Made by a program: the position numbers and the translations under genes
Notes under the pieces: model-generated
What the model saw: the letters and a program-made list of their open reading frames with translations, nothing else
The model's database searches: none
Told to the model about the DNA's origin: nothing
From: Enterobacter hormaechei subsp. xiangfangensis
GTDB taxonomy: Bacteria > Pseudomonadota > Gammaproteobacteria > Enterobacterales > Enterobacteriaceae
Direction: 5' to 3'
Length of the DNA: 64,000 bases
Assembly (NCBI RefSeq): GCF_001729785.1
Contig: NZ_CP017183.1
Span: 1-64,000 of the forward strand
Shown: positions 31,496 to 33,804 of the stretch, one piece after another
Layout of the letters: each line of letters begins with the position of its first letter
Numbering within the stretch: the stretch's first letter is position 1

Positions 31496-31585
31496 TCACT
31501 TAACGTATTTCAGGACAGCATCAAGCAGTTGCAATACAGCAACAATGAGTTTGAGGACAAGTATGACCATATCCACGACGCTCAT
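31496..31585 (-). CDS. tisB: SOS-induced membrane toxin TisB
   Basis: TisB is a 29-aa inner-membrane peptide toxin that dissipates proton motive force after DNA damage and promotes persister formation. The translation is MSVVDMVILVLKLIV..., ending QLLDAVLKYVK. It is one amphipathic helix and agrees with E. coli TisB at most positions, with conservative changes. The ATG follows AAAAGGAGACGCGT. The start and stop were read directly; the frame has 30 codons. It is made from a LexA-controlled promoter near 31775 and is blocked by the IstR antisense RNA. Confidence 0.93.
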   Translation of the reverse strand: MSVVDMVILVLKLIVAVLQLLDAVLKYVK

Positions 31586-31803: not shown

Positions 31804-31865
31804 TATTTTATGGACAAATTTTGGAAGGCGATCCATACTCAAAAACGTCAAAATCCGTGCCGGAA

Positions 31866-31894
31866 TTGCGCGTTCGTCTTCGATCGCGTATACT
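31866..31894 (+). promoter_or_regulatory. Constitutive istR-1 promoter
   Basis: TTGCGC (31866-31871) and TATACT (31889-31894) are 17 bp apart, placing the start at G31901, the first base of the predicted IstR-1 RNA. It diverges from tisB. Confidence 0.75.
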
Positions 31895-31900
31895 TTTCGC

Positions 31901-31977
31901 GTTGACGTAACACAGTGTGTTCTGCGGCGACCAACCGCAAAACCCTGATAAAAACCTCGCTTAGGCGGGGTTTTTTG
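31901..31977 (+). ncRNA. istR: IstR-1 antisense small RNA
   Basis: This ~77-nt RNA starts GTTGACGTAACACAGTGTG, like E. coli IstR-1, and is perfectly complementary over 18 nt to the tisB mRNA leader. It ends with a rho-independent terminator AACCTCGC-TTAG-GCGGGGTT plus Ts (31953-31977). It inhibits tisB translation until SOS induction makes tisB mRNA exceed it. A longer LexA-dependent form, IstR-2, is known in E. coli and may also start upstream here. Confidence 0.9.
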
Positions 31978-32305
31978 TTTTCTGGACTGCCCATAAAAAG
32001 ACTGCTGTAAAAGCGAGGTTTCTGCTATTTAGCTTCGTTGTGAACGGGATAGCATCGCTTATGCAACTTTCTTTATAGAGATAGGTATTAGACTCATTTT
32101 GCAATGATTAAACTAAAAATGTGTGAACTAATAAAAACCGCTAATGCCCTTCAAGTAATTAAGTTGTTTCGTATATAACCTTAATAAATAAAATCGTACT
32201 GACTTATTTTTTATGTGAATGTTTATGTAAAGCAATTTTACTGGTTTGAATTTCTGGACTTTTCAATGTATATTTCTATAGCCACAATCATTGTGTGTAT
32301 ACATT
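31978..32305. other. AT-rich intergenic region before the Hcp cassette
   Basis: These 328 bases are much more AT-rich than the flanking core genes and hold no convincing gene. They must contain the promoter of the cassette at 32306; candidate A/T-rich -10 elements are too many to choose from. No integrase site, direct repeat or insertion sequence is evident. The sequence begins directly after the istR terminator, which marks the left edge of the accessory segment. Confidence 0.6.
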
Positions 32306-33019
32306 ATGCAAGCATCTGATTATTTAAAGATGAAGTTCCAGAGTGACAGGCAGTTGGCTATTTATGGACAGCAAGGTGTTGCAGGAACATGGCGAGCATT
32401 AAAGGGGATTGGCTCTGATATTTACTCAGGAATTGAGTGTGTAAGTTGGTACTCATCATGCTTAATCCCCAGCTATCACGATGTGTGTGACGAGCTTCTC
32501 TCCGAAGAAAAGAGAATGTACCTCTCAATCCTCTCGCTTTACCGTTATCGCGATGTAATAGCACACATGCTCTATCTTTATTTTGAACATGTTATTTCCG
32601 ATTCAGAAAACGGGAATGAACACAATCGCGTTCGCAAGATAGATTCAAAAGTAACAGGGCTTGTTAATAACATACCGACCAGCAAGGCCGCGCGTTTAGC
32701 AATAGCATGGGGTCTGGCCAAATCCCTGTCCGAATCAGGCCTGCTGTCTGAAATCGTCGTCGAACGGCTTGCACGCCGCGTACCTAACGTTGTCATGGCG
32801 CTTCAATTGATTGGAACGGAACAGAAGTGCGCTCTTGCTGCTCGCCGCCTGAAAACATTGGACCCTAAGTATTACGCCACCCTCTATGCCGCACAACTGG
32901 AGATGCTTTACTACTTTTTTGAGCCTTTCCTGTCTGAACTCATTAAGAAGGTGCAGTTGGGATTCTATAAGGATTTCGATGCAATTTATAAAGACTTAAA
33001 GAGCACGGAGCATGTTTAA
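32306..33019 (+). CDS. Unrecognised 237-aa protein, candidate T6SS effector
   Basis: I do not recognise this family. The protein is largely helical, with amphipathic or hydrophobic stretches around residues 65-95 (YLSILSLYRYRDVIAHMLYL), 125-145 (ARLAIAWGLAKSL) and 195-215 (YYATLYAAQLEMLYYFFEPF). It has no signal peptide and a basic middle part. Its gene overlaps that of a two-helix membrane protein by 8 bp and is followed by an orphan hcp. That layout resembles effector-immunity pairs delivered by Hcp, such as pore-forming Ssp6 of Serratia; this is inference only. Start ATG at 32306 chosen; no good Shine-Dalgarno is visible. Base composition is AT-rich. Confidence 0.7.
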   Translation: MQASDYLKMKFQSDRQLAIYGQQGVAGTWRALKGIGSDIYSGIECVSWYSSCLIPSYHDVCDELLSEEKRMYLSILSLYRYRDVIAHMLYLYFEHVISDSENGNEHNRVRKIDSKVTGLVNNIPTSKAARLAIAWGLAKSLSESGLLSEIVVERLARRVPNVVMALQLIGTEQKCALAARRLKTLDPKYYATLYAAQLEMLYYFFEPFLSELIKKVQLGFYKDFDAIYKDLKSTEHV

Positions 33020-33194
33020 GAGTCTGTTATCAATTCTATTCACGGATATTTTATTCCCTGTTTATATTTTTGCGTGCGCCTCTTTGTTTCTGTGGTTAGT
33101 GCCTGACCACTGGGTATTACTAACATTCATTTCTATCATTGTATTTATTATTGTACATCCGATAATTTTCGGCCACTTTGATAAGTACGATTAA
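33012..33194 (+). CDS. Small two-helix membrane protein, candidate immunity protein
   Basis: The 60-aa protein is mostly two hydrophobic helices (about 4-30: LLSILFTDILFPVYIFACAS..., and 34-52: VLLTFISIIVFIIVHPIIFG) with a short charged tail FDKYD. The ATG lies within the last codons of the upstream gene (8-bp overlap), with GGAG just before it, so translation is coupled. A membrane protein so tightly coupled to a putative membrane-active effector would suit an immunity role. That function is inferred from position only. Confidence 0.65.
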   Translation: MFKSLLSILFTDILFPVYIFACASLFLWLVPDHWVLLTFISIIVFIIVHPIIFGHFDKYD

Positions 33195-33217
33195 ATCATA
33201 TAAAAAGGATTTTTTTT

Positions 33218-33697
33218 ATGTCAAACCCAGCTTATTTGTTTTTAACAGATGAAAATGGTTCTCCCATGGTTGGCTCTTGCCTTGTGTCAGGGCGTGAAGG
33301 TGCAATTGAACTCAAATCGTTCACTCATAATGTCAATATCCCAGTCGACGGAAATACCGGGAAATTAACGGGCACGCGCATACACATGCCCGTCATGTTT
33401 CAGAAGGAATTTGATCGTGTAACCCCGATTTTATTTCGGGCGCTGAGTACGGGAAGAATGCTCAAGTCAGCCACTATTAAGATGTTTCAGATTAATGAGG
33501 CGGGTTTAGAACAGGAATATTTTAATATCCTTCTGGAGAATGTGAAAATAACCTCAATCACACCAGACCTGTATCCCGGCGCAAACACCGGAACACACCT
33601 TGAAACGGTTGTTATACGCTACGAGAAAATCACCTGGAAGCATTGTGACGGCAATGCCATCTATAGTGATGCCTGGAATGAGCGAGCAACGTACTGA
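33218..33697 (+). CDS. Orphan Hcp (T6SS tube protein, TssD)
   Basis: Hcp hexamers form the inner tube of the type VI secretion system and can carry small effectors in their lumen. The 159-aa protein is a full-length Hcp: it starts with YLFLTDENGSPMVGS, has the conserved TGKLTGTRIHMPV and EYFNILLENVKITSI, and ends with the family signature YEKITWKH.DGN.IYSDAWNERATY. No other T6SS core gene lies in the window, so it is an orphan hcp that would depend on an apparatus encoded elsewhere. AAAAAGGA precedes the start by about 11 bases. Confidence 0.93.
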   Translation: MSNPAYLFLTDENGSPMVGSCLVSGREGAIELKSFTHNVNIPVDGNTGKLTGTRIHMPVMFQKEFDRVTPILFRALSTGRMLKSATIKMFQINEAGLEQEYFNILLENVKITSITPDLYPGANTGTHLETVVIRYEKITWKHCDGNAIYSDAWNERATY

Positions 33698-33804
33698 AAC
33701 GTGATCCCTGACGCATTTTTGCGCAGATGAAAATATTTCCATTGTCACGCCCGAAAACCTGTGTTTGTATAAATTCAATCAATGATTCCAAACACAGGTC
33801 CCCA

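What the first reader, a model, noticed from the sequence alone, without database searches (positions are those of the whole stretch)
32306..33697. Orphan Hcp cassette with an unrecognised 237-aa protein and an overlapping two-helix membrane protein
Seen: three plus-strand genes in AT-rich DNA between istR and ivbL, where E. coli has none. The first two overlap by 8 bp; the third is a full-length Hcp without any other T6SS gene. Known: Hcp can carry small effectors, and Serratia Ssp6 is a pore-forming, Hcp-dependent effector with a membrane immunity protein. Inferred: the 237-aa protein is a membrane-active T6SS effector, the 60-aa protein its immunity partner, and this Hcp its carrier. The order effector-immunity-Hcp, with Hcp last, is less usual than Hcp first.
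Basis: partly seen in the sequence, partly recalled or inferred. Interest (0 to 1): 0.88.

Follow-up and report, generated by a model that had tools for sequence, protein, structure and literature searches.

The report
Hcp-linked Ssp6-like toxin and immunity cassette
This is a compact three-gene weapon cassette, most likely a membrane-damaging toxin, its membrane-bound antidote and the tube protein that carries it into rival bacteria, inserted at a spot where related bacteria swap such genes; it is a new member of a known kind rather than a new principle.

Summary
In detail: three plus-strand genes (237-aa protein, 60-aa two-helix membrane protein overlapping it by 8 bp, Hcp) lie between istR and ivbL in low-GC DNA. 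The 237-aa family recurs in the order effector, small membrane protein, Hcp: an Hcp follows in 63 of 70 loci fetched in the window's genus and in 46 of 80 named loci. The three proteins co-diverge (r 0.82-0.90) under purifying selection, and the genome has a T6SS cluster. A distantly homologous protein (hhalign 97%; 40 shuffles at most 4%) follows tssC in two relatives, much as a paper places an Ssp6-like effector (PMC6889166). So: a divergent Ssp6-like, probably pore-forming T6SS effector, its immunity protein and a dedicated Hcp. 'Hcp last' is the rule here. Paired Cys52/Cys61 (93 of 95; the other two lack both) suggest a disulfide and action from the periplasm. The istR-ivbL site is a hotspot: empty, this cassette, HigBA, or Tle1-like lipase. 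A branch without Hcp occurs in P2-like prophages. Direct homology to Ssp6, secretion and pore formation were not testable.

The parts
32306..33019 (+). 237-aa putative T6SS effector, predicted all-helical, no hydrophobic N-terminal stretch, Cys52/Cys61 pair; subfamily phrog_26461 (unknown function)
33012..33194 (+). 60-aa two-helix membrane protein, putative immunity protein, 8-bp overlap with the effector gene
33218..33697 (+). 159-aa Hcp (TssD) of the subclass that goes with this effector family
31977..33715 (.). inserted stretch between istR and the conserved DNA upstream of ivbL; about 40 bp stand here in relatives with an empty site
31846..31976 (+). istR antitoxin RNA, left border of the hotspot
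31496..31585 (-). tisB-like toxin ORF (end of the 51-aa ORF), flank
   Evidence: name recalled from its sequence; gene order as in E. coli
33805..33903 (+). ivbL leader peptide, right flank
   Evidence: name recalled from its sequence; gene order as in E. coli

Best explanation
A mobile T6SS cassette. The Hcp (33218-33697) forms or joins the tube of the chromosomal T6SS, carries the 237-aa effector, and brings it into a neighbouring enterobacterium. In the victim's periplasm the effector probably forms a disulfide (Cys52-Cys61) and its helices insert into the inner membrane, most likely as an ion-conducting pore as shown for Ssp6. The 60-aa two-helix membrane protein, whose gene overlaps the effector gene, protects the producer. 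Shown by computation: gene structure, family, recurrent linkage, co-divergence, purifying selection, T6SS cluster in the genome, distant homology to a protein encoded directly after tssC in two relatives. Inferred: loading in this Hcp, periplasmic action, disulfide, pore, immunity.
For: A same-strand Hcp within 700 bp downstream in 63 of 70 genus loci and a small membrane ORF in 67 of 70 (L196 and L288 are one place, the window's own locus is included). In 80 named loci: same-strand Hcp within 500 bp downstream in 46, any Hcp in 56, all 56 within 1 kb; small membrane ORF in 78. Two more such cassettes in the own genome with Hcps 59-60% identical to this one; the other three full ones are 44-49%. 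Of 34 Hcp loci inspected, 20 of the 21 that are 56% or more identical to this Hcp carry the family or its distant branch, 0 of the 13 at 55% or less do. Co-divergence over 73 cassettes: effector-Hcp r 0.90, effector-immunity 0.89, 0 of 2000 permutations each (not corrected for ancestry). T6SS cluster. TssK in 50 of 51 family-positive against 57 of 147 negative genomes. One family-like protein (L243) lies in a T6SS cluster beside Hcp, TssA-like and TssM-like genes. hhalign to the distant branch 97.0%, E 8.7e-11; reversed 0.1%; 40 shuffles at most 4.1%. That branch's profile matches a 221-aa protein, followed by a 70-aa two-helix ORF, directly after tssC in L347 and L350; the Ssp6 paper puts an Ssp6-like gene between tssC and hcp in E. 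cloacae EcWSU1 (PMC6889166, passages). A K. pneumoniae record has family member, small ORF, orphan tssD; that paper reports Ssp6-like genes with orphan hcp in some K. pneumoniae. By record title, 80 of 80 named loci are Enterobacterales, as reported for Ssp6. Cys pair.
Against: No hydrophobic stretch like a membrane helix in the 237-aa protein itself (best 19-residue mean 0.89; 95 members: median 1.34, range 0.75-1.92, 18 at 1.6 or more). Model confidence modest (pLDDT 67.7) and no PDB fold match at E 0.001. Ssp6 itself could not be compared, and the proteins after tssC match the window's subfamily only weakly when compared directly (68%, E 4.8e-5). 0 of 32 viral-contig members have an Hcp in the fetched flank, and 24 of 80 named loci have none. 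Within the genus there is no positive association with TssK: 39 of 43 family-positive genomes have a match, one of them (G200) only a short piece, while 18 of 18 negative ones have one. The Cys pair is absent from the distant branch, so it is not shown to be an Ssp6 trait. One Hcp of the subclass (L314) goes with other genes.
Confidence: 0.82

Rival explanations
1. Same T6SS cassette, but the effector is not a pore former: it harms the envelope from the periplasm in another way (enzyme or binder), and the membrane protein blocks it there.
For: No membrane-helix-like stretch in this member; no fold match; only a distant, indirect link to Ssp6.
Against: The partner is a small membrane protein in 78 of 80 and 67 of 70 loci, and the distant branch is found directly after tssC, near where an Ssp6-like gene is described.
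Confidence: 0.2
2. Toxin and membrane antidote are a toxin-antitoxin or phage-exclusion module; the Hcp is a passenger.
For: 32 viral-contig members without Hcp, nine of them between portal and gpA genes of P2-like prophages, a known anti-phage hotspot; the istR-ivbL site also hosts HigBA.
Against: Strong Hcp linkage and co-divergence; the same site hosts Tle1-like T6SS lipases; no PADLOC match; the conserved Cys pair would not be expected to oxidise in the cytoplasm (inference).
Confidence: 0.07
3. A decaying remnant: intact-looking genes that are no longer delivered.
For: The third own-genome cassette has its effector gene in two pieces; in 8 of 70 genus loci the longest effector piece is under 195 aa; four family-positive genomes have no TssK match.
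Against: This copy is full length, with effector dN/dS 0.10-0.22 in 11 comparisons.
Confidence: 0.06

Closest known systems
Ssp6-Sip6 (Serratia marcescens T6SS, PMC6889166)
   Same: Small effector, overlapping downstream ORF with two membrane helices, Enterobacterales only, sometimes beside orphan hcp (paper passages)
   Different: Ssp6 itself is not linked to T6SS genes; this subfamily is only distantly related to the protein found after tssC, has a Cys pair that branch lacks, and is mostly tied to one Hcp subclass; pore activity untested
Ssp4-Sip4 (PMC12669606)
   Same: T6SS pore former with inner-membrane immunity protein, within an insertion in an ilv gene cluster (passages)
   Different: Described as unrelated to Ssp6, with 13 helices and a sheet, and found beyond Enterobacterales; not compared by sequence here
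PHROG family phrog_26461
   Same: The 237-aa protein matches over residues 1-232 (E 9.7e-39)
   Different: Family of unknown function; the viral-contig members seen here lack Hcp
Other orphan-Hcp cassettes (Tlde1; DUF1493 pair) in the same genome
   Same: Effector and immunity candidates beside an orphan Hcp
   Different: Unrelated proteins, less similar Hcps; the two Tlde1 ones have Hcp first, the DUF1493 one has Hcp last

Membership tests
Ssp6 family | Sequence homology to Ssp6 | tested here: inconclusive
   Ssp6 sequence not in any collection reached; indirect chain only: A1 against seven distant-branch proteins (the two found after tssC included) 97.0%, E 8.7e-11; profile of the other five against those two E 1.9e-23 and 1.6e-22 with two targets; those two directly against A1 68%
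Ssp6 family | Small ORF with two membrane helices directly downstream, overlapping | tested here: met
   8-bp overlap, two helices; Sip6 is 204 bp with 4-nt overlap
Ssp6 family | Restricted to Enterobacterales | tested here: met
   80 of 80 loci shown, by record title, out of 142 found with one peptide pattern; 62 not seen
Ssp6 family | Genes linked to hcp or a T6SS cluster in part of the members | tested here: met
Ssp6 family | T6SS-dependent secretion, periplasmic toxicity, neutralisation by the immunity protein | not testable with these tools
   needs experiments
Ssp6 family | Cation-selective pores, depolarisation | not testable with these tools
   needs experiments
Ssp4 family | Sequence homology to Ssp4 | not tested
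   no Ssp4 sequence at hand; reported distribution differs (paper passages)
Hcp / TssD (TIGR03344) | Match above the curated cut-off over the full length | tested here: met
   124.7 bits, cut-off 58.9, residues 1-155 of 159
phrog_26461 | End-to-end profile match | tested here: met
   E 9.7e-39, residues 1-232, profile 1-229 of 233
Known anti-phage defence (PADLOC) | Any model match at E 0.1 | tested here: not met
   0 families for each of three proteins

The most novel reading that the evidence does not exclude
One toxin and two-helix antidote pair serves two vehicles: in chromosomal cassettes it is locked to its own co-evolving Hcp clade and activated by a disulfide in the victim's periplasm, while related branches without Hcp sit in the anti-phage hotspot of P2-like prophages, either borrowing the host's T6SS or guarding the lysogen against other phages.
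Probability: 0.2. Interest if true: 0.62.

Novelty: new member of a known kind. Interest (0 to 1): 0.4.

Why it matters
It assigns a likely role to an unannotated, widespread enterobacterial family, gives a testable one-effector-family, one-Hcp-subclass pairing, marks the istR-ivbL gap as a place where T6SS weapons and toxin-antitoxin genes are exchanged, and points to prophage-borne relatives of what is probably a pore-forming effector family.

Tried and rejected
Pfam and NCBIfam gave no family above cut-off for the first two proteins; PADLOC none; no solved structure by profile up to E 1; no PDB fold match, best E 1.4. The viral fold library was never searched: each try met a busy machine. 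The phage collection gave no match to one viral-branch member. TssC or VgrG near the family was sought in 112 loci and not found. Loci about 10 kb from tssK proved not to be in the tssC-hcp gap. The window's own subfamily was not found after tssC in 30 loci; only the distant branch was, in two, and hcp itself lies beyond the fetched flank in those two. Colicin kinship was considered for plasmid pEAR4.3, where a two-helix ORF lies upstream on the other strand, but nothing tests it. Literature: 'Ssp6-like' occurs in one held paper. The listings showed no account of prophage-borne members or of the ivbL site; beyond PMC6889166 and PMC12669606 their hits were not opened, supplements were not available, and papers outside the held library were not seen, so this subfamily may already be among the 95 homologues of PMC6889166.

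Full report
Observation. GC falls to 31-51% there. The third is a full Hcp. Rfam finds istR at 31846-31976 and ivbL follows at about 33805. One E. coli record has nothing annotated between tisB and ivbL; a distant DNA search of 5,426 E. coli genomes found only a 78-bp flank match, in 10.

The genome. It is one contig of 4.66 Mb; the nearest named effector homologues, 92-93% identical, are in Enterobacter. It has a T6SS cluster: TssJ, TssK, TssL, TssM, TagF, TssA and TssC proteins, TssB, TssF, gp25-like, ImpE, ClpV-like, VgrG, FHA and PAAR proteins, the main Hcp and Tae4, with Tae4 between tssC and hcp. TssG was not identified. There are six full orphan-type Hcp genes, this one included, and a fragment. 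Three of the six stand in this kind of cassette; in the third the effector gene is in two pieces. The others stand beside Tlde1 (two) or DUF1493 (one) genes.

Family and linkage. In 198 genomes of the family sample, 51 have a relative of the 237-aa protein; in the genus 43 of 61, a few by weak matches only. I fetched 70 loci from the genus places listed (two are the same place, the window's is included): 63 have an Hcp on the same strand within 700 bp downstream, 67 a small membrane ORF; in 8 the longest effector piece is under 195 aa. Of 142 relatives in named genomes, found with one peptide pattern, the best 80 were returned: 46 have a same-strand Hcp within 500 bp downstream, 56 any Hcp, all within 1 kb, 78 a small membrane ORF; in some Brenneria, Pectobacterium and Lonsdalea loci the Hcp is convergent. 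Of 32 viral-contig loci none has Hcp and 26 show the small ORF; some loci are cut by contig ends.

Hcp subclass and co-divergence. In 20 genus genomes, Hcp genes were listed by identity to this one and 34 Hcp loci, the own genome's six included, were inspected. Of 21 that are 56% or more identical, 20 carry the family or its distant branch; L314 (58%) follows a different gene pair. Of 13 at 55% or less, none does. Over 73 distinct cassettes with all three proteins (93 found, 77 distinct, 4 without a clear small ORF), distances correlate at 0.90 (effector-Hcp), 0.89 (effector-immunity) and 0.82 (immunity-Hcp), 0 of 2000 permutations each; mean identities are 0.38, 0.26 and 0.67 for effector, immunity and Hcp. 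The permutations do not correct for shared ancestry. dN/dS against 11 relatives is 0.10-0.22 for the effector, 0.05-0.26 for the small protein, 0.04-0.21 for Hcp (a twelfth, L180, was saturated).

Link to Ssp6. Ssp6 itself was out of reach. Distant relatives in the genus (L229-L231, L233, L234) also have effector, membrane ORF, Hcp, and one family-like protein in another genus (L243) lies in a T6SS cluster next to Hcp with TssA-like and TssM-like genes. In L347 and L350, two of 30 tssC loci inspected, the gene directly after tssC encodes a 221-aa protein, followed by a 70-aa two-helix ORF overlapping it by 8 bp; hcp is beyond the flank fetched there, while in many of the other loci it follows within about 0.9 kb. 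The Ssp6 paper places an Ssp6-like gene between tssC and hcp in Enterobacter cloacae EcWSU1 and others beside orphan hcp in Klebsiella pneumoniae (PMC6889166, passages read). The 221-aa proteins match the distant-branch profile (E 1.9e-23 and 1.6e-22 with two targets); the distant branch with these two against A1 gives hhalign 97.0%, E 8.7e-11, 157 columns; reversed A1 gives 0.1%, 40 column shuffles at most 4.1%. The two alone against A1 are weak (68%). A K. pneumoniae record has family member, small ORF and tssD and belongs to the window's subfamily (E 1.5e-74). So the window's family is a divergent sister, probably of the Ssp6 kind.

Mechanism. AlphaFold2 gives an all-helical protein (pLDDT 65.2 and 67.7) with no PDB match. 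It has no strongly hydrophobic helix but some amphipathic stretches. Cys52 and Cys61 are both present in 93 of 95 aligned members and both absent in the two Photorhabdus ones, which suggests a disulfide. In Serratia, target-cell DsbA is required by the periplasmic effectors Ssp2 and Ssp4 (PMC5792426, passages; Ssp6 is not mentioned there). Hence the model: delivery by Hcp to the periplasm, oxidation there, membrane insertion. All steps of this paragraph after the Cys pair are inference.

T6SS presence. TssK is found in 50 of 51 family-positive genomes and 57 of 147 negative ones (Fisher p 1.3e-15); the exception is G062. The negatives include very small genomes (0.4-2 Mb), so this overstates the link. 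Within the genus 39 of 43 positives and 18 of 18 negatives have a TssK match, so there is no enrichment there; the four without are G203, G220, G226 and G251, and G200 has only a short piece.

The site. Of 30 genus loci with tisB-istR that were fetched (the 30 best matches), 8 are empty (40 bp), 7 hold this cassette, the window included, 13 hold a HigBA-like pair or its remains (both genes in 11, no HigB in L202, a 35-aa HigB piece in L210), and 2 something else (Pfam for one HigB and one HTH antitoxin). The two others carry an 802-aa or 801-aa Tle1-like protein (72% identical to each other; PF22137 and PF09994) with one to three lipoprotein-like DUF3304 genes, probably its immunity proteins (two of the four tested). 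So T6SS weapons and toxin-antitoxin genes alternate there. Ssp4 in Serratia also sits in an insertion in an ilv cluster (PMC12669606, passages), not necessarily the same one.

Prophage branch. On a 114-row tree the window protein lies in a supported set of 16 rows, 15 with Hcp; 20 of 31 viral rows fall in one supported set of 24 rows that has no Hcp row, the other 11 elsewhere; the Hcp label needs 13 changes against 38.3 shuffled. Among 32 viral loci, nine (L133, L135-L138, L140, L145, L150, L152) have a gpA-like gene on one side and a portal-like gene on the other, and three (L132, L134, L147) follow tail-fibre-assembly genes, with the sheath gene downstream on the same strand in two; the rest could not be placed. 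The gpA-portal interval is a hotspot of anti-phage systems in P2-like phages (PMC9122126, passages). The Cys pair is kept in the viral members aligned, which favours action outside the cytoplasm and so T6SS delivery, but exclusion is not ruled out.

Verdict. The kind is known. The subfamily's Hcp pairing, the Cys pair, the site hotspot and the prophage branch are details of which I saw no account in the listings named; the supplement of PMC6889166 could not be read.

Noticed in passing
L317, L318 (other genomes of the genus), between istR and ivbL: The same site carries a Tle1-like T6SS lipase with one (L317) or three (L318) lipoprotein-like DUF3304 genes, so it is an exchange site for T6SS effectors.
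   Followed up: partly
L200-L204, L206, L210, L211, L214, L217, L223, L225, L227, istR-ivbL site: A HigBA-like toxin-antitoxin pair occupies the site in 13 of 30 loci, with HigB missing or reduced in two.
   Followed up: partly
L133, L135-L138, L140, L145, L150, L152; L132, L134, L147: Family members without Hcp in P2-like prophages, in the gpA-portal hotspot or after tail-fibre-assembly genes.
   Followed up: partly
L164 (Erwinia amylovora pEAR4.3), L166 (Mixta plasmid): Small plasmids carry family members without an annotated Hcp; on pEAR4.3 a two-helix ORF lies upstream on the other strand.
   Followed up: partly
own genome about 1303.6-1305.2 kb (L044): Third cassette of this kind with the effector gene in two pieces but intact-looking small membrane ORF and Hcp.
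   Followed up: no
own genome about 1983-1987 kb and 2483-2484.5 kb: Further TssC copies, a TssB and a partial TssK, suggesting incomplete T6SS remnants.
   Followed up: no
L329, L330, L331, L333, L336, L337, L343, L344, directly after tssC: Small ORFs of 71-77 aa with one or two hydrophobic helices and no family effector beside them, perhaps orphan immunity genes.
   Followed up: no
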